From Dermacentor variabilis (Eukaryota > Arthropoda > Arachnida > Ixodida > Ixodidae): a DNA stretch of 64,000 nt. A model generated the notes under the pieces. That model did no database searches. It saw nothing but the letters and a program-made list of their open reading frames with translations, and was not told where the DNA came from. Location: NCBI RefSeq assembly GCF_050947875.1, contig NC_134576.1:54874255-54938254 (forward strand). The letters are read 5' to 3'. This document shows, piece after piece, positions 14,604 through 54,763 of this stretch; the stretch's first letter is position 1; each line of letters opens with the position of its first letter. The position numbers and the translations under genes were made by a program.

Positions 14604-17600
14604 TTACGCCCACTGCAGGGCAAAGGCCTCTCCCATACTTCTCCAACTACCCCGGTCATGTACTAATTGTGGCCATGTTGTCTCTGCAAACGTCTTAATG
14701 TCATCCGCCCACCTAACTTTCTGCCGCCCCCTGCTACGCATCCCTTCCCTTGGAATCCAGTCCGTAACCCTAAGTGACCATCGGTTATCTTCCCTCCTCA
14801 TTACATGTCCGGCCCATGCCCATTTCTTTTTCTTGATTTCAACTAAGATGTCGTTTACCCGCGTTTGTTGCCTCACCCAATCTGCTCTTTTCTTATCCCT
14901 TAACGTCACACCCATCATTCTTCTTTCCATAGCTCGTTGCGTCGTCCTCAATTTCAGCAGAACCCTTTTCGTAAGCCTCCAGGTTTCTGCCCCATATGTG
15001 AGTACTGGTAACACACAGCTGTTATACACTTTCCTTTTGAGGGATAGTGGCAACCTGCTGTTCATGATTTGAGAATGCCTGCCAAACGCACCCCAGCCCT
15101 TTCTTATTCTTCTGGTTATTTCAGTCTCATGATCCGGATCCGTGGTCACTACCTGCCCTAAGTAGATGTATTCCCTTACCCCTTCCAGTGCTTCGCTACC
15201 TATCGTAAACTGCTGTTCTCTTCCGAGTCTGTTAAACAATACTTTAGTTTTCTGCAGATTAATTTTCAGACCCACCCCTCTGCTTTGCCTCTCCAGGTCA
15301 GTGAGCATGCATTGCAATTGGTCTCCTGAGTTACTAAGCAAGGCAATATCATCAGCGAATCGCAAGTTGCTAAGGTATTCTCCATCAACTTTTATCCCCA
15401 ATTCTTCCCACTCCAGGCCTCTGAATACCTCCTGTAAACATGCTGTGAATAGCATTGGAGATATTGATTGATTGATTGATTCTTTATTGGTTTATCACAT
15501 ATACATGTGATGGGAGGCGAAGGGAAAAGCCATTCAAGGATGGCTTGAGGGAGTCCTTCGCCCCCACGCTGGCAAAGACAACAGCAGAGGCACACACGTC
15601 CTGTTCACATGGTCGTACACTTTTGCAAAACCATCATATTAAGCACAACATTGCCATAAACCTTGACAAAACCATAAAATTAAACACATTAGTTACTGTC
15701 CTACGTAGGGCTACATGCGTTAACATACTTTACTTCACCTCAGCATCGAATGACAGCACATTTCATAACAATGTACGGTTAGTAATAGTGACATTGAAAC
15801 AATATAATTAAATAGCAATCGTAAACAGCTCTAGTGGTCAATGTTAGGCTAGAAAGAATGTGTACAAGTCAGATAATGTTGCTTCGCGAATATCGATTTG
15901 TTTTTTATTAAACTCATTTAGTAGACGTGGAAGTTTGTTTTGGAGCATTCGCCGACCATAGCCAGTGTGACAATATGGAACATTCCATATTTCTGTTGTT
16001 CTAGTGGCATATGATGCTTCCTTCAAATGGAGATTCACCAAACCCATGAAGATAGAATTATGACAATCATAGTTAAGGCGATATTCACGCAACAATTTAT
16101 GCTCATATGTGTCTTGTACTCAAATTATTTTAAATTTTTTAAAGAGTTCCACAGTAGAATGCCGGAGTGGCACATTCTCAATTATTCTCAAAATTCTTTT
16201 TTACATGACTGATAGCCGCGAGAAATTCGATTGTGTTGTAGTCCCCCAGACCAAATGACAATAGTTTAGATAGGAAGCGAAGAGGGCGTTATAGATTAAG
16301 AATTTTATTGACTTCGGGATTAAGTAGCGGTTTCTGTTCAGAATTCCCGTTATTGCACCTAACTTTTGTAATATCGCATTGATATGCTCATCCCACTGCA
16401 GTGATTCTGAAAACTGTACACCAAGTACTTTAAGAGACCTAACTAGTTCTATCTCTGAGCAGCGATTATCGTATCTCCCTGTCTGACGCCTTTCTTTATA
16501 GGGATTTTGTTGCTTTCTTTGTGGAGGACTACGGTGGCTGTGGAGCCGCTATAGATATCTTCCAGTATCTTTACATATGGCTCATCTACACCCTGATTCC
16601 GTAATGCCTCCATGACTGCTGAGGTTTCGACTGAATCAAACGCTTTCTCGTAATCAATGAAAGCTATATATAAGGGTTGGTTATATTCTGCACATTTCTC
16701 TATCACTTGATTGATAGCGTGAATATGGTCTATTGTTGAGTAGCCTTTACGGAATCCTGCCTGGTCCTTTGGTTGACAGAAGTCTAAGGTGTTCCTGATT
16801 CTATTTGCGATTACCTTAGTAAATACTTTGTAGGCAACGGACAGTAAGCTGATCGGTCTATAATTTTTCAAGTCTTTGGCGTCCCCTTTCTTATGGATTA
16901 GGATTATGTTAGCGTTCTTCAAAGATTCCGGTACGCTCGAGGTTATGAGGCATTGCGTATACAGGGTGGCCAGTTTCTCTAGAACAATCTGACCACCATC
17001 CTTCAACAAATCTGCTGTTACCTGATCCTCCCCAGCTGCCTTCCCCCTTTGCATAGCTCCTAAGGCTTTCTTTACTTCTTCTGGCGTTACCTGTGGGATT
17101 TCGAACTCCTCTAGGCTAATCTCTCTTCCACTATCGTCGTGGGTGCCACTGGTACTGTATAAATCTCTATAGAACTCCTCAGCCACTTGAACTATCTCAT
17201 CCATATTAGTAACGATATTGCCGGCTTTGTCTCTTAACGCACACATCTGATTCTTGCCTATTCCTACTTTCTTCTTCACTGTTTTTAGGCTTCCTCCGTT
17301 CCTGAGAGCCTGTTCAATTCTATCCATATTATAGTTCCTGATGTCCGCTGTCTTACGCTTGTTGATTAACTTAGAAAGTTCTGCCAGTTCTATTCTAGCT
17401 GTAGGGTTAGAGGCTTTCATACATTGGCGTTTCTTGATCAGATCTTTCGTCTCCTGCGATAGCTTACTGGTTTCCTGTCTAACGGAGTTACCACCGACTT
17501 CTATTGCGCACTCCTTAATGGTACCCATGAGATAGTCGTTCATTGCTTCAACACTAAGGTCCTCTTCCCGAGTTAAAGGCGAATAACTGTTCTGTAGCTT

Positions 17601-32599: not shown

Positions 32600-33535
32600 T
32601 ACAATTTTAAAATGCCGCGACGGAAAGCGCTTCTGTTGCGACTTCAGAACTCTTGTCCGTCGCGACAGAATGTTTCTGTTGCGACATCAGAATTGGTGTC
32701 GTAACGTCGGAGTCGCTGTCACGATATAAAGCTGTTGTTCCGACTGCAGAATTCTTGTTGTCGCGACAGAACCTTTCTTGTTGCGACTTCATAACTCTTG
32801 GCCTTCGCGACAGAATGCTTCTGTCGCAACATCAGAATTTCTGTCGTAACGTCAGAAATGTCTCTCAATTAAGAAACGTCAGGAACTTCTGTCGTACAAC
32901 AGAATTTCTGTAGTTGCGACAGGAATTCCTGTGTCTTTTTTAACTCGGCACTACAGAAGCTTGTCGCATCGCACAATTTCAGTGCACTTCTGTTGTCATC
33001 ATTGGGTACATGTTGCGACGATAGGTTTCCGTTGTAGAACAACAGTTCTCTGTAGTACAACAGAAGTTTGTCGCATTACTTCAGGAACACTTCTGTTATG
33101 ACACTTGGGGGCCTGTTGCAATGATAGGTTTCTGTCGTACAACATTTTTCTGTAGTACAACAGAAGTTGGTCGCATTACTTCAGGAACACGTCTGTTGGG
33201 GCCTGTTGCCACAATAGGTTTCTGTAGTATTTCAACAGCTCTCTGTAGCACTACAGAAGTTTGTCGGGTTACTTAGGGAACATATTGTTGGGACAATAGG
33301 GTACCTGTAGTGATGACAAATTTTTCTGTAGTACTACAAAAATCTGTTGTAGAGCTTCAGCTTTCTCTTGTAACAACAGACATACGACACAGTGTACTTC
33401 TGTAGTCACAACAAGAAATGTCTGTTGTACATCAGAAAAGTCTGTCGCTCCATCAGCAATCTGTAGTTACTATAGAAAAATCCTGTTGTACAACAGAAAT
33501 TTCTGTAGTACTGAACACAACCTCTGTTGTCCTTT
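32600..33535. repeat. Degenerate satellite of palindromic CTGT/ACAG words
   Basis: About 940 bp is built from variants of TTCTGTNGTNNNACAGAA, many of them self-complementary (for example CTGTAGTACAACAG). In 32940-33300 a longer unit of roughly 115 bp recurs about three times. It combines ACAGAAGYTTGTCGCA, TTACTTCAGGAACAC, GGGGCCTGTTG and GATAGGTTTCTGT. Copies are diverged, so it is old. It lies between the LTR element and the G-run repeat. Confidence 0.75.
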
Positions 33536-33540
33536 TCAAC

Positions 33541-33984
33541 TGGGAAAGCACACGTTTGGAAATGTCAATGCACTTTTCACATCAAAAGTTTATGAGAACT
33601 TCATACCCATAATGTTTCGGAATGGACATCCACGCGCTCCGTAAATTCCATGATAGAGTCTAGATTCCACGGCCTCCGCGAGATGCCGCGGCGAGCCCGT
33701 TCGCCATCAAAATATCCTTGAAACTTTGTGCTCGGATGGGGCTACTTGCGTTATGTGAATCCCGATGCACGGACGTTGCCGCGAAATCCAGCCTGAGTTC
33801 CCAATTTTCGCGGTGAAATGGCTTTTCGAGCGTGAAAAAGACGCTCTAGACAAAATCCAGAATGATTTCCAGCGCCGGGGGTTGCTTTGGTCGGCGGTGC
33901 ATGGACAGCACGAAAAAATTTCGGGGCGGGGGGCTGAAGCCCCATAAGTCTCCCCCCCCCCCTGGCTACGCCGCTGCCGCTCAC
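33541..33984 (-). repeat. G-run dispersed repeat
   Basis: On the minus strand it begins GGCGTAGCCAGG followed by a G run, then AAATTTTTTCGTGCTGTCCA and about 350 bp of non-coding sequence. Similar in style to 12770-12990. It abuts and cuts the CR1-like RT fragment. Confidence 0.5.
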
Positions 33985-34764
33985 CTATACTGAATGACTT
34001 CGTTTGGTTAGAAAATTAGCTATCCCAAATATAATCCTACAGTTTATGTTAGGATTCGTTAGCTTCATTAATAAGCGGATGTGCGGAACTTTGTCAAATG
34101 CTTTTGCAAAATCAATAAATACAGCTTCTGTTTTTGGTCCACCATGAACGGCTTCGTGGAGGTCAGTTACCAATTCGAATAGTTGAGTGTCACAGGAACG
34201 ACCATGAAGGAAACCATGCTCATTGCTAGAGAAGAAAGTGTGATCTGCTACAAATTTCATGACGGTGGGTGATATAATGGGCTCTAGTAATTTACAACAT
34301 ATGCTTGTTAGTGAAATGGGCCTGTAGTTTGAGACTAAGGAGGGATCATCAGATTTAAAAATGGGAATCTCACTTGCACACCTCCAGGCGTCAGGCACGC
34401 ATCCTGTATCAATAGACTGTTGAAAAATAGCAACCAAGATACGTGATACAGCTCGTTTTGTAAGCTTTAGCAATATTGCGCAGATGTCATCCGGTCCCGG
34501 TGCCGAATTAACTGGTAGACGATCTATAGCGGCTTGTACACCTTCGCGAGTGACTATGAGGTCATTGATTGAAGTATTTAAGCTGAAACAGTTCAGATCT
34601 GGTGGCACTGGTTCTTTTGATGTGAAAACCGAACAGAAAAAAAAGCGTTTAATTCTTCCGCAACATCGGACTGCAGAAGAGGCTCCCCGTCTTTCGTTAT
34701 CGACATAAGGGATGATGACGATGACGAACCACAGACAGGGATTCCACAATATTGACAACTTCAC
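33985..34764 (-). pseudogene. CR1-like reverse transcriptase fragment
   Basis: A minus-strand open frame encodes about 260 residues from the finger and palm region of a non-LTR RT. Motifs are NSAPGPDDICAILLK, VSNYRPISLTSICCKLLE, NEHGFLHGRSCDTQLFE and AVFIDFAKAFDKVPH (first catalytic Asp). The YADD motif and everything after it are missing, because the sequence ends at the junction with the G-run repeat. The upstream endonuclease is absent. It may belong to the same family as the nested fragment at 15465-16466, which covers a later part of RT, so the two cannot be compared directly. Confidence 0.8.
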
Positions 34765-40087: not shown

Positions 40088-43000
40088 ATGGATACACAAA
40101 TCATTCAATGGAACATCAGAGGTCTCCTTAGAAACCTTGATGATTTGCAAGAACTCATCCACAAACATAATCCAAAAGTGCTGTGTTTACAGGAAACACA
40201 CTTAAAATCTAAACACACAAACTTTCTCCGCACGTATGTTACGTTTCGCAAAGACCGCGATGATGCCGTCGCATCATCGGGTGGTGTTGCCATCTCACTC
40301 ATAGAAGTATTGCGTGTCAACCTTTACAGCTACAAACGCCCCTTGAAGCAGTGGCGGTTCGAGTTGTCCTACTAAACAAACTCATCACCATTAGCTCTCT
40401 TTACATACCCCCACATCACAAATTAACGAAACAAGAATTTCAATCCTATATAGATCAATTGCCAGAACCTTATGTTGTTCTCGGCGATTTCAATGCGCAC
40501 AGTTCCCTGTGGGGCGACTCTCGTACAGACGCGCGAGGTCGTCTCGTTGAACAGTTCCTTTTCTCTTCTGGTGCTTGTCTTCTGAATAAGGAGGAAGCGA
40601 CATACTATTCTCTTGCAAACAGAACATTTTCTTCAATTGATCTTAGCCTAGTCTCCCCGTCACTACTGTCTGAACTTGAATGGGAAGTAAACGACAATCC
40701 TTACGGAAGCGACCACTTCCCTATACTACTACGAACATATAAAGAAAACGAATGTCTACCACAGGCTCCCAGGTGGAAAATAGATACAGCCGACTGGGAG
40801 AAATTCAGAACTCTCACCAGGATCTCATGGAATGACATGGCCTCTTTAGAAATTGATGCTGCCGTTCAATATTTTACAGCCTTCATTATAGATGCCGCAT
40901 CAAAATGCATATCTGAAGTAAGTGGTTTCGCATGCAAACGGCGCGTCCCGTGGTGGAACGACGAGTGTAGGACCGCCCGTAAGAAACAAAACAAAGCGTG
41001 GGGGTTGCTACGCGCCTCTCCCACTGCGGAGAATCTTATTAACTTTAAGAAAGCAAAATCTGAAGGAAGGAGAACGCGCCGACAGGCCAGAAGAGAGAGC
41101 TGGCAGAAGTTTTTATCGGGTATCAACTCTTATACTGAGGAGGGGAAAGTCTGGAACAGGGTTAACAGGATAAAAGGACGAGAAACTTATTCACTCCCTC
41201 TAGTAAATACGCAGGGCGATACACTGAAAGATCAGGCCGACTCACTTGGGGAGCACTTTGAGAGTGTATCAAGCTCAAAACATTATTCGCAATCCTTCCT
41301 AAAATATAAACAAATGGAAGAATGCAAACCACTCGTCAATAAATGCCGACAGAATGAACCGTACAATTGCCCTTTTAGTGCTGCCGAGTTGAAATATGCC
41401 TTGAGCGCATGCAAGAGCTCTGCACTGGGATCCGATAGAATCATGTATGAAATGCTCAAAAACTTACACAATGACACGCAAGTAACACTACTTACACTTT
41501 TCAACACTATCTGGGACGCAGGGTACCTTCCAACGGCATGGAAAGAAGCCATTGTGGTCCCTGTTTTGAAAGAAGGGAAACACCCTTCTTCAGTGGCAAG
41601 TTACCGCCCGATAGCCCTCACAAGCTGCATGTGTAAGGTATTTGAAAAAATGATAAATCGGCGACTCATCCATTTCCTTGAACAAAACAAAATGCTTGAC
41701 CCCTTTCAGTGTGGCTTCCGAGAAGGGCGCTGCACAACCGACCATCTTGTACGTATTGAAGGACATATTCGTGACGCGCTTGTACACAAACAGTTCCTCT
41801 TATCGATATTCCTCGATATGGAGAAGGCGTACGATACGACCTGGCGCTACGGAATCTTGAGAGATTTGTCGGAAATGGGCATTCATGGTAATATGCTAAA
41901 CGTAATAAAAAGCTACTTGTCCAGTCGTACCTTCCGGGTGAAAGTCGGCAATGTGCTGTCACGTCCTTTTACACAAGAAACTGGTGTACCCCAGGGAGGC
42001 GTGCTCAGTTGCACACTTTTTATTGTTAAAATGACAACGCTTCGTGCGTCCTTACCACCAGCCATTTTGTATTCCGTCTATGTGGACGACATTCAAATAG
42101 GCTTCAAATCCTGTAACCTCGCAGTATGCGAGAGACAGGTACAGCATGGTTTGAACAAGGTGTCAGGGTGGGCAGAGAAAAATGGTTTTAAAATCAATCC
42201 TCAAAAAAGTTCTTGTGTCCTGTTTACAAGGAAGAGAGGCCTAGTTCCGGATCCTTGCTTACAAATATGTGGACAACAGATTCCTGTAAACAAAGAGCAC
42301 AAATTTCTAGGTATTATACTCGACAATAGACTCACTTTCGTCCCACACATTAAACAACTCAAAGTGTCTGAAAACAATGAACCTAATGAAACTTCTATCC
42401 CAGACTACGTGGGGTAGTGACAGGAAGTGCCTAATGAATCTGTATAAGAGCCTCATCCGGTCACGATTAGATTATGGTGCCGTGGTATATAACTCTGCCG
42501 CCCCAAGCGCACTAAAGATGCTAGACCCGGTTCACCATCTAGGCATCCGTTTAGCCACGGGCGCTTTCAGAACAAGCCCAATTGAAAGCTTATATGCCGA
42601 ATCGAATGAATGGTCTCTCCACCTACAGAGATCATACAACAGCTTTGCATATTTCCTTAAAGTACGCTCTAATCCTGAACACCCATGTTTTGATACCGTT
42701 ACCGATATGACGTGCGCTACACTTTTCAGCAACCGTCCCTCTATAAGGCAGCCTTTTTCCCTGCGTGTGAAGGAGCTTAGCAATGAAATGCATGTCCCAC
42801 TCCTCGAGCATCGCTTAATGCACACAATCAAGCTCTTACCTCCTTGGGAGTGGAAGGTGATACAATTTGATATATCCTTTATAAAAGTTACAAAGCACGC
42901 TCCTGAGGCCGAAATCAGAATGCATTTCCTAGAACTCCAGCACAAGCATTCCTGTGCAGAGTTCTACACAGACGCTTCGAAGTCAAATGCCGGGGTATCC

Positions 43001-51688: not shown

Positions 51689-51698
51689 TTTATAGTGT

Positions 51699-51844
51699 GG
51701 GCTGTACCCGGCTGCAGTGCAATACCAGGACAACCCGTGGCGCTGGAGGGGCAAGCCCCGTCCTAGCGCCGCCTTACAAAAATAGGATTAATATCGTAAG
51801 ACCCATATAAGGGCCGTATCAGATATTAAGCTGATAAGAACAGA
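51699..51844 (-). ncRNA. U2: U2 snRNA gene, 3' portion (nt ~39 to end), interrupted
   Basis: Minus-strand sequence matches U2 from about nucleotide 39: TCTGTTCTTATCAG, TTAATATCTGATACG (stem IIa), the Sm site region CTATTTTTGT, stem-loop III with GGGGCTTGCCCC, and stem-loop IV with CCTGGTATTGCA. U2 pairs with the intron branch point in the spliceosome. The first part of the gene lies 2.9 kb away at 54729-54763 on the same strand, with LINE sequence between. Several changes from conserved positions indicate decay. Confidence 0.88.
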
Positions 51845-52815
51845 GGTTTTTGAAAAAATGCTTGTTACATTTTCCCCGTGAAAGACGGTTTTATTGATGT
51901 GAATTTACTAGAGTTTTGGTGTTAGTTTTTGGGCAGGCATGGAGGTGTGTGTTTGTTTAGTGTTTGTTGAGTATTTTGGAAGTTTTTGTGCTGGCATAGA
52001 AGTGTGTGTTGGTGTAGTGTGTGTCTACCTAGTGCTGTTCTTCACTTGGCTGTGATGTGCGCTGCATAGATGTCTCGTGATGCAGCGATTGTCTCGCTCA
52101 CGGCAAGTTTCTTGAACAGCCGCAGGTATTTGCGGCTGCAGAAGCGGCGCATAACCCGGTCGTTTTGGGGATCCCACGATCCAAGTGCCCCGATGATGAT
52201 GGCCTCCACGGTCACTTTCTGGAATTTCCGCAGCAGGTATTCCCGGACTGGCTGGTACTTCTCCTCCTTCCCCTGGCGGGCCGCGTTCAGGGCTGCAGGC
52301 CGGTTCTCGAACGGGCAGGTTACATCAATGATGATCGCCTCCTCGCCCCTGCAAAGCACAAGGTCAGGACGGAGATTAGTGTTACCTACTGGACGATTCT
52401 CGTGGGTGACAGTGAACTTGGCGGAGGCAGCGGCTTTCACTCGGTTCACGATCTGGTTGTGGCGGTTGGTGTATGCTTGACTGTGAGTCATGCAGTGACA
52501 CAGGACATGTGGCAGGGTCTCTGGTTGACCGCCACAAATCCTACACCGTTGGTCCACGGCCGTAGCCCATGGCCTCGCTGCGTTCAGGGGAACGACGTTA
52601 AGTCGGGCCCGGTGAACGAAACGCCAGTCGGCAAACCTCGTGAATTGGCCGGTACGTACAAAGTGGGAACTGCTCCGGTCGGCGGCAACGCACTCCATCA
52701 CTTTCCCCTGACTGGGTTTTTGGTACCGTTGTCAGATGGGAAGAGGACTTGGCAACCAGAGGCGCCGCGTCCCAGAGCTTTCATGTACTCATCAACCCAG
52801 CATCATTCGATACAT
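51845..52815 (-). mobile_element. RLE-type LINE 3' end inserted in U2 (Utopia/NeSL-like)
   Basis: A minus-strand fragment of a LINE with a restriction-like endonuclease. It has a 3' UTR of about 200 bp carrying AATAAA (51895-51890) and ends directly at U2 nt ~39. It is 5'-truncated, and its upstream edge near 52815 is approximate. Utopia is a published RLE LINE lineage that inserts in U2 genes; assignment here rests on the protein style and on the target. Confidence 0.8.
52042..52701 (-). pseudogene. RLE-type LINE protein, C-terminal end
   Basis: About 219 open residues. The segment SSHFVRTGQFTRFADWRFVH is followed by a CCHC finger (CRICGGQPETLPHVLCHC) and the restriction-like endonuclease core RPDLVLCRGEEAIIIDVTCP. 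This is the PD-(x)n-D arrangement of R2, NeSL and Utopia-type LINEs. It ends at TAA/TGA near 52042. The endonuclease nicks a specific site to prime reverse transcription. An in-frame stop lies just upstream (near 52740), and related sequence continues in another frame, so the N-terminal side is frameshifted as well as truncated. No RT motifs of this element are present. Confidence 0.82.
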
Positions 52816-54728
52816 TGACCCCGGTACTCCCCCACAACCCGGGCTGACTGGGTGGGGGGACTTGGTTCGGGCCAACGGTCCTTCCCGGACAAGGGGGCTG
52901 TTGTGGTGCAGTCCAACTGAGGGACTGCACTCAACACACAAACAGCCATGTCGGTCTTGCAGGGCACAAGCCTGACTGACCCTCGGACTGCCCTGACGCA
53001 AAAGAGGTCAAGGCATACAACCATGGAGACCACCAAAGCCGTCCGCGGAGCAGCGCGACCACTTGAGGGTGCACCACCACCGGTTCCAGCTCTGGGTTCC
53101 ACTGAGCCAAACAAAACCCCGTAGATCGACTGGCGCACACGGCCGAGTCGTGCGACCTTTGGAGCATGCATCATAACTTAATGGATAGCTTTCCACCTGA
53201 CTCGTCAAAAATCACGGCAGGACGAGCCCACACTTCGAGAAACTTCTTCTCGCCCAAGCGGTGCCGCTCCCGGGTGAGGTGGAACCAGACCTCCTTCCGT
53301 GCTTTCGCAAGCACTTCGTGAAGGCCCGGTGCCCGACCCCCGAAAATTGCATCGCAGCGTGCCAGCCAAACTTGGTATGAGCACTCGGCGAGGAGAAGCA
53401 CGAACTGGTTGATCGCCTGATTGGGCAAAGGGTGCAAAAATCGGACTGTCTCATAAGGAACGCCTGGGAGCCTAAATAGACTAGCAACTCTTTGGAGAAG
53501 AGCTGCAGGAAGCAAACACTGCGTAAAGATATGAACTGAGTCCTCACGAGCGCCACAGAAAGGACACACTGCACGAGCCGGGATGGCTGTGAAGGGCCTG
53601 TAGCTCAACGGCAGGCACCCTCGCGCCAGGCGGTACATAAAGGTGGCTCGCCTGGCGTCGAGGAAACCGGCCGTAATGAGCTTCCAGTTTGGCCTGTGAA
53701 TCGACAGGTCGTACCTTTGGCAATGTGGGGGGAGTCCTGGGGTGAGGATATCCACTAACTCTTGGAGTGGAGCTGAAACTACGTCGATGCCTGGGTGAAC
53801 CTTGCGGAGGCTTACCAAAGAGTTGGCAGCCGCCGCATAAATGGTGGACGGGGTACCTGAACGAGGAACACAGTGGGAAAATGTGCTCTGCGAGAACAAG
53901 CGGAGTCGGGTGCTAAGAAAGAAGGAAGTTAAGCTTCGAGTTAGGAGCATATCCGAGTTAAGAGCGACCTGGGTCCACCTGACGTGTAGTGCAGTAGCCA
54001 CGATGCCCAGGTCGGGAATTCCGAGTCCTCCCTTGTCCCTGGGCAACTTGAGCACCCGCCTAGCTACACAACCAGTTGTACCCTTCCAGAGGAAGCGAAA
54101 CAAGACCCTCTCCAAGATAAGCTTGGTTCGGGTTGGAATAGGAGACACACACGCCACATACGTCAGAAAGGAAAACAGAAGTGAGCGAAGGATTGTCGCT
54201 CGAGCAGTCAAAGGGCATGACAACGCGCTGAATTCCTGAACCCTGGCTTCAAGCTTCTCCTTAGCCTGTTGCCAGTTTTCGGGAGAGAGACCATCTGGTT
54301 CGAACTGGAAGCCTAGAATCCGCAGCCGCGTTTTCACGGGGAGACCATGAACGGGCTGCGGACTGGAAGGAGTGGAGTTCAAGTACATTGCTGCACTTTT
54401 CGACCTATTCAACCTTGCACCGCTCGCCCCGCAGTAACTGTCCATGACCTCCAGGACGCCGCAAGCTGATGCTTCGTCCGGGACGACAATGGACAAGTCG
54501 TCTGCATAGGCAAAGAGTGCAACCGGGGGGGAACCTGGTGGAAGTAGGAACCTGCCAATTCTGCTGTCACAAGACAACCTCTGCAGAAGCGGTTCAAAAG
54601 CGAGTACGTAGAGGGCAGGTGAGAGCGGGTCCCCCTGTCGCACACCACGTCCCACAATGAACGCCTCCGAGAGGCGGTCTCGTATGAGAACAGCAGAAGT
54701 CGGTCGAGAATACAAAGCTTGGATGGTA
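52816..54728 (-). mobile_element. Tx1/L1-like LINE fragment in U2 (Keno-like by location)
   Basis: A minus-strand LINE, 5'-truncated within RT. Its 5' edge abuts U2 nt ~35 and its 3' UTR (53170 to about 52816) abuts the RLE-type LINE. Keno is a published Tx1-clade lineage targeting U2 genes. Membership is inferred from RT style and position. Confidence 0.7.
53171..54727 (-). pseudogene. Tx1/L1-like reverse transcriptase, C-terminal two-thirds
   Basis: The open frame begins at the U2 junction and ends TAA at 53171, with no internal stop. RT motifs are GVRQGDPLSPALYVL and FAYADDLSIVV (catalytic Asp pair), then SGARLNRSKSAAMYL and ILGFQFEPDGLSPENW. The thumb region reads VLFRFLWKG and GGLGIPDLGIVATALHVRW, typical of L1/Tx1 LINEs. 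A zf-RVT finger CPFCGAREDSVHIFTQC (CX2CX7HX4C) and a tail of about 115 residues follow. The endonuclease and RT fingers are missing by 5' truncation. The long intact frame suggests the insertion is not very old. Confidence 0.85.
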
Positions 54729-54763
54729 CATTTGATCTTAGCCGATAGGCCGAGAAGCGATGC
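54729..54763 (-). ncRNA. U2: U2 snRNA gene, 5' portion (nt 1 to ~35)
   Basis: Minus-strand ATCGCTTCTCGGCC begins at 54763. It continues through GGCTAAGATCAA to nt 35 with three substitutions (positions 16, 18 and 31 of U2). It then breaks just where GTAGTA, the branch-point-pairing sequence, should be complete. The same strand resumes U2 at 51844. Confidence 0.88.

What the first reader, a model, noticed from the sequence alone, without database searches (positions are those of the whole stretch)
51699..54763. U2 snRNA gene split by two different LINE types in tandem
Seen: U2 nt 1-35 and nt ~39-end sit on the same strand, 2.9 kb apart, with a 3'-box-like motif after the second part. Between them are a Tx1/L1-like RT and an RLE-type endonuclease tail, both in U2 orientation. 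Known: Keno (Tx1 clade) and Utopia (RLE clade) are reported U2-targeting LINEs. Inference: both lineages exist in this tick and hit the same gene. A second insertion at the same downstream site would place the newer one (RLE) next to U2 nt 39, as observed. The break falls at the branch-point-pairing sequence.
Basis: partly seen in the sequence, partly recalled or inferred. Interest (0 to 1): 0.92.

Follow-up and report, generated by a model that had tools for sequence, protein, structure and literature searches.

The report
Hitchhiker LINE in tick U2 gene
In a tick genome one gene for the splicing RNA U2 is broken by a fused insertion: the tail of a jumping element that aims at U2 genes, joined to the tail of an unrelated element that normally lands elsewhere, most likely copied in together in one event.

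Summary
U2 nt 1-35 (54727-54761) and nt 39-end (51692-51844) lie on the minus strand and are halves of one C9-cluster U2 gene, 2.9 kb apart. The species is probably Dermacentor variabilis.

The downstream insert is a 5'-truncated Utopia (RLE type). Its three near-identical copies elsewhere have full-length frames, and all four join U2 at nt 39: U2 targeting is confirmed.

The upstream L1-type RT fragment is not a U2 element. It belongs to a young dispersed LINE (83 scored copies). Of 25 examined 3' flanks, 0 are U2 and 11 lie in one LTR-like repeat. In the window the family's 3' end GGTACC abuts the Utopia truncation point, and its broken 5' end abuts U2 at Utopia's own cut site.

Best reading: one chimeric insertion. 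Utopia primed at U2, then synthesis passed from truncated Utopia RNA to the LINE RNA's 3' end. Main rival: a LINE inserted into a resident Utopia, with a matching deletion.

Side findings: a full-length Utopia duplicating U2 nt 1-39, pointing to transcription from U2 +1; separate APE-type LINEs in U2 genes.

The parts
54727..54761 (-). U2 snRNA gene, nt 1-35 (5' half)
   Evidence: 35/35 to the paralogues L012 and L013
54725..54726 (-). two extra bases (CC) at the U2|LINE join; in register they replace U2 nt 36-37, and the next three (ATC) fit both U2 38-40 and the LINE
52722..54724 (-). 5'-truncated dispersed L1/Tx1-like LINE: C-terminal part of ORF2 (to the stop at 53171) and 3' end to GGTACC
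51845..52724 (-). 5'-truncated Utopia (RLE-type LINE): CCHC finger and endonuclease (stop at 52042), 3' UTR; shares ACC (52722-52724) with the LINE end
51692..51844 (-). U2 snRNA gene, nt 39 to end (3' half)

Best explanation
A single chimeric insertion made at Utopia's own target. Shown: this Utopia family inserts at U2 38|39; its copy here is 5'-truncated; a dispersed LINE of another type is joined by its family 3' end to that truncation point, with ACC shared; the LINE is itself 5'-truncated and meets U2 at nt 35-38, i.e. at Utopia's site. Inferred: Utopia protein cut a C9-cluster U2 gene and primed first-strand cDNA on Utopia RNA at nt 39. When the template ended, with the cDNA reading ...GGT-3', synthesis went on from the 3' end of a LINE RNA (...GGTACC). 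[quoted passage not shown] Synthesis broke off inside LINE ORF2 and the end was joined to U2 with two extra bases and an ATC overlap. The break lies in the branch-site-pairing stretch of U2 (established knowledge), so this copy should not work as U2.
For: Utopia U2 targeting: 4 of 4 copies at nt 39. LINE not a U2 element: 0 of 25 flanks U2, 24 of 25 begin AC while U2 nt 39 begins TCTG; no copy of it in the fetched flanks of 41 of the 46 U2 places listed. LINE end exact at the join, ACC shared with the Utopia ORF. LINE 5' break within 3 nt of Utopia's site, with extra bases and microhomology, as at 5'-truncated R2 copies of Drosophila (PMC2718515, passages). Junction found once: of 40 scored matches only the window runs through all 301 bases. 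Both elements in sense orientation, both near-identical to copies elsewhere. Silkworm R2 RT jumps between RNAs in vitro, best with 1-2 nt overlap (PMC8857657, passages).
Against: The LINE's usual flank also begins AC(C), and at the LTR site the target itself supplies ACC, so the ACC in Utopia is just what the LINE's own insertion into Utopia DNA would show. Only one such chimera was found. No allele with and without it was available. The three sub-mechanisms are not separable here.
Confidence: 0.68

Rival explanations
1. A Utopia was already resident in this U2 gene. The dispersed LINE later inserted itself at ACC inside the Utopia ORF, and the Utopia part upstream was lost together with the LINE's 5' part.
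For: 24 of 25 LINE flanks begin AC; Utopia reads ACC at the join; LINE-made deletions are known (recalled).
Against: The deletion would have to end within about 3 nt of the U2|Utopia boundary out of some 3.6 kb of Utopia. A Utopia already truncated there needs the LINE to hit the boundary by chance.
Confidence: 0.17
2. One reading: two independent site-specific insertions at U2 38|39, first a Tx1/Keno-like LINE, then a Utopia.
For: APE-type LINEs do sit in U2 genes here, L111 joining at nt 39, and two C54 loci have such a LINE directly followed by a Utopia 5' end.
Against: The window's LINE is another, dispersed family with 0 of 25 flanks U2, outside their clade. Its flanks begin AC in 24 of 25, and the U2 site does not.
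Confidence: 0.04
3. Recombination between U2-cluster genes, or an assembly join, brought the LINE and the Utopia together.
For: Both elements have near-identical copies elsewhere and the U2 cluster is repetitive. No reads were available.
Against: Both U2 halves and both flanks are the same local variant; the LINE 3' end is exact and the 5' join falls at Utopia's site.
Confidence: 0.09

Closest known systems
Utopia (Kojima and Jurka 2015, PMC4640811; abstract, parts of the text, sections 6, 7 and 9 and passages read)
   Same: RLE-type LINE with CCHC finger, 3' flank at U2 nt 39; Ixodes scapularis is in their host table; tandem copies are reported for the wasp Nasonia
   Different: Here a truncated copy carries the 3' part of an unrelated LINE; one full-length copy duplicates U2 nt 1-39
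Keno (APE-type U2 LINE; known to me through PMC4640811 passages)
   Same: L1-group RT next to a U2 fragment; the published 3' flank is the same nt 39
   Different: The window's LINE family is dispersed and is not joined to U2 in 25 of 25 other flanks; the APE-type U2 LINEs of this tick are a different clade
Chimeric LINE insertions: L1 with U6 and other RNAs (PMC13174262, passages), Magnaporthe LINE chimeras (PMC2104539, abstract)
   Same: A foreign RNA copy fused in sense orientation on the 5' side of a 5'-truncated LINE
   Different: The carrier is a site-specific RLE-type LINE and the passenger is the tail of another autonomous LINE of a different class
R2 template jumping (PMC8857657, passages) and R2/R1 5' junctions (PMC2718515, passages)
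   Same: Related RT class; overlaps, extra bases and small target losses at 5' junctions; duplication of upstream target in R1
   Different: In vitro or 28S targets; not a second LINE in a snRNA gene

Membership tests
Utopia | 3' flank begins at U2 nt 39 | tested here: met
   4 of 4 copies of the family; 11 of 15 flanks of it and its relatives begin TCTGTTCTT, 2 TCTGTAGT, 2 neither
Utopia | ZF - RT - CCHC - RLE in one ORF | tested here: met
   Seen by eye in the 1,268-codon open frame of L026; CCHC and RLE also in the window. No domain search was run on the full ORF
Utopia | No target duplication in arthropods | tested here: met
   Window and L088/L089 show none; L026 duplicates U2 nt 1-39, which I read as cDNA of a U2-started transcript
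Utopia | RT groups with published Utopia RTs | not tested
   No published Utopia sequence was at hand
Keno | Copies sit in U2 genes at nt 39 | tested here: not met
   Window LINE: 0 of 25 flanks U2
Keno | RT groups with Keno in the Tx1 clade | not tested
   L1 group by best solved relatives; no Keno or Tx1 reference was at hand
Chimeric LINE insertion | Passenger 3' end exact, same orientation, joined to the 5' break of the carrier | tested here: met
Chimeric LINE insertion | Formed in a single event (empty allele against full chimera) | not testable with these tools
   Only paralogous empty genes were available

The most novel reading that the evidence does not exclude
Site-specific RLE LINEs can carry other autonomous LINE RNAs into snRNA genes: a free cDNA end left by Utopia at U2 serves as primer for a second LINE's RNA, so a dispersed element gains a foothold at a site it does not target. 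Together with the copy that duplicates U2 nt 1-39, tick U2 genes would be a natural system in which Utopia transcription from U2 +1, end joining and template relay can be read from junctions.
Probability: 0.4. Interest if true: 0.68.

Novelty: new variant of a known kind. Interest (0 to 1): 0.52.

Why it matters
R2-type RT template jumping is known from biochemistry. A natural case in which a site-specific RLE LINE carries another LINE is something I did not meet in the listings of my six answered literature searches, which were not exhaustive and cover open-licence papers only. The same genome holds a U2 nt 1-39 duplication that points to Utopia transcription from the U2 start, which bears on how such elements are expressed. 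It also shows that several LINE lineages occupy a low-copy essential gene.

Tried and rejected
Two independent site-specific hits: rejected on the flanks of the LINE family. That the flank shared by 11 of 25 LINE copies is the LINE's own longer 3' end: rejected. It is a repeat with 40 scored copies, 28 of them in 14 pairs 2.9-5.7 kb apart (so read as LTRs, an inference), and only 2 of those 40 lie next to a listed LINE copy (coordinates). The tails are more diverged than the LINE parts: 85.6% against 99.5% mean identity over all 11, 93.3% against 99.4% without L079, which leaves the shared sequence early. That the 5' U2 piece is a chance match inside the RT frame: rejected by the 35/35 match and the shared flanks. 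Viral contigs: nothing confirmed for either protein or for a U2 pattern. The U2 pattern in bacterial assemblies found one contig, L001. No structure was predicted. The Rfam whole-genome list (46 scored of 92,623 candidates) does not contain even the window's own U2, so its counts are lower bounds; I fetched 1-5 kb flanks for 41 of its 46 places.

Full report
1. The observation. The window lies at G000:C9:54874255-54938254 of a 2.48-Gb genome in 605 contigs. Contig C11 is 127,598,819 bases long, the length given for the contig of a protein named from Dermacentor variabilis (P0128), so the species is probably D. variabilis (inference). The U2 3' half scores 104.8 bits, the 5' half 30.9 bits, below the family cut-off of 46. 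The 5' half is identical over 35 nt to the start of the paralogues L012 and L013 of the same C9 cluster; the C4, C7 and C11 genes that I read differ. Paralogous genes without an insert match on both sides: L011 and L013 upstream 97.2% over 613 bp and 92.7% over 1,038 bp, downstream 84-95%; L010, L012 and L014 also match on both sides, at 86-97.5%.

2. The downstream insert is a Utopia. 52042-52724 encodes a CCHC finger and an R2-like endonuclease. In the same genome 152 matches were listed or counted, 150 scored of 610 candidates. Four are one near-identical family: the window, C7:100806208, C7:128608570 and C7:128631462; the last three have 1,268-codon open frames. The window copy differs from the C7:100.8-Mb copy at 3 of 880 nt, one of them the last base before U2. 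All four join U2 at TCTGTTCTTATCAG, published nt 39. Of 15 examined 3' flanks of this and related families, 11 begin TCTGTTCTT, two (L090, L091) TCTGTAGT, two (L097, L099) neither. This is the published Utopia junction (PMC4640811).

3. The upstream insert is not a U2 element. Its RT is of the L1 group. Relatives above 45% identity were tick proteins or unnamed assemblies. In this genome 83 copies including the window's were scored, of 13,451 candidates: 79 at 95-100% identity; 31 with an open frame of at least 1,100 codons, two of these with a stop inside the match; 25 lie at C7 22.6-24.3 Mb. I read the 3' flanks of 25 of the other 82. All 25 match the LINE-end probe; 24 of 25 are then followed by AC, 0 of 25 by TCTG, and none holds a U2-like stretch at the setting used. 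Eleven lie at two nearby ACC sites of one LTR-like repeat. In a tree of 32 rows the LINE groups with P0001, P0002, P0003 and P0006 (100/100), apart from a 13-row clade (100/99) that holds the four APE-type U2 elements I placed; one row (P0116) was dropped for length, and long branches are flagged there. Nucleotide searches found no LINE sequence in the fetched flanks of 41 of the 46 U2 places.

4. The joins (coordinates checked). (a) Utopia|U2: exact nt 39. (b) LINE|Utopia: the LINE's family end GGTACC meets the Utopia ORF, ACC being common to both. A 301-bp query across it found only the window in full; the 39 other scored matches (of 645 candidates) end at q178-195. (c) U2|LINE: U2 to nt 35, then CC, then ATCCAAGC of the LINE, whose native context is GATG|ATCCAAGC in 10 of 10 copies. 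In register with U2 (TGTA GT ATC TG against TGTA CC ATC CAAG) the join falls at Utopia's own cut site. Small losses, extra bases and 1-5 nt overlaps are what 5'-truncated R2 copies show in Drosophila (PMC2718515, passages).

5. Mechanism. One event explains (a)-(c) together: Utopia cut U2, primed at nt 39 and copied its own RNA up to a break; the cDNA end took up the 3' end of a LINE RNA and went on until a second break, which was joined to U2. Silkworm R2 RT jumps between RNAs in vitro, best with a 1-2 nt overlap; the same paper says the L1 chimeras of mobility assays come from pre-ligated RNA (PMC8857657, passages), and the LINE's own RT could have taken over. These are not separable here. 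The ACC overlap counts partly for the rival that the LINE inserted itself into a resident Utopia, since AC(C) is its usual flank. The coincidence of its 5' break with Utopia's U2 site counts against that rival, which needs a deletion ending by chance within a few nt out of some 3.6 kb.

6. U2 promoter use by Utopia. In the full-length C7:100.8-Mb copy (L026) U2 nt 1-39 (that gene's own numbering) is followed directly by a second U2 nt 1-39 and then by the Utopia 5' end. The two other full-length copies have one U2 nt 1-39 before the same 5' end. The simplest reading is that the copied RNA began at U2 +1, i.e. came from a U2 promoter, and that in L026 the cDNA was joined without using the homology. 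R1 elements of Drosophila show comparable duplications (PMC2718515, passages). One copy of three; inference.

7. Other LINEs in U2 genes. APE-type or L1-group LINEs with a U2 flank beginning GTGTAGTATCTG were read at L017-L021; L103, L105 and L106 show nearly the same join. Whether GTGTAG is U2 or the element's own end is open, because it also stands before non-U2 sequence (L108). L111 joins at nt 39, and L023 has the same tail and flank. L043 has open frames for ORF1 and ORF2 and leaves U2 after nt 26. Of 42 matches I asked for 20 flanks; 18 were usable, and most of these 18 were not followed by a U2 3' half.

8. Verdict. A real, young, probably single-event chimera: a U2-specific Utopia carrying the tail of a dispersed LINE. 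New variant of a known kind.

Noticed in passing
L026 (G000:C7:100805800-100815799): Full-length Utopia with U2 nt 1-39 present twice in tandem before its 5' end, pointing to transcription from U2 +1.
   Followed up: partly
L017-L021, L043-L045 (C11, C54): APE-type LINEs in U2 genes, 3' flank GTGTAGTATCTG, a few nt upstream of the published Keno/Utopia site unless GTGTAG is their own end; L043 leaves U2 after nt 26.
   Followed up: partly
L104, L121 (C54): An APE-type LINE directly followed by a Utopia 5' end, 93% over 227 bp: real tandem pairs of two LINE types.
   Followed up: partly
L024, L025, L027-L041: Dispersed repeat fused to a U2 body (...GTAGACATGGCCGACGCGGGTCAAAGTGTAGTATCTG) in 16 of these 17 loci (not L038), like a SINE carrying U2 sequence.
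   Followed up: no
L065 and C7:22.6-24.3 Mb: 25 of 83 scored copies of the window's LINE cluster here; one flank translates as the start of a histone H2A (by eye), so this may be the histone gene array.
   Followed up: partly
L046-L048, L052-L054, L058, L059, L077, L079, L081: The window's LINE has a hot spot at two ACC sites in an LTR-like repeat: 11 of 25 flanks.
   Followed up: partly
L016 (C11:126963877-126966084): A 15-bp insert (AGCATGAATAAAAAA) at U2 38|39, probably a very short Utopia copy.
   Followed up: no
L001 (mollusc-symbiont assembly contig): Contaminant contig with an L1-group LINE before a U2 3' part that starts at GTATCTG, and a U2 start further on.
   Followed up: no
window 15000-17500, 33500-34500, 41000-42300: Other RT-like stretches matched by the fetched proteins.
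   Followed up: no
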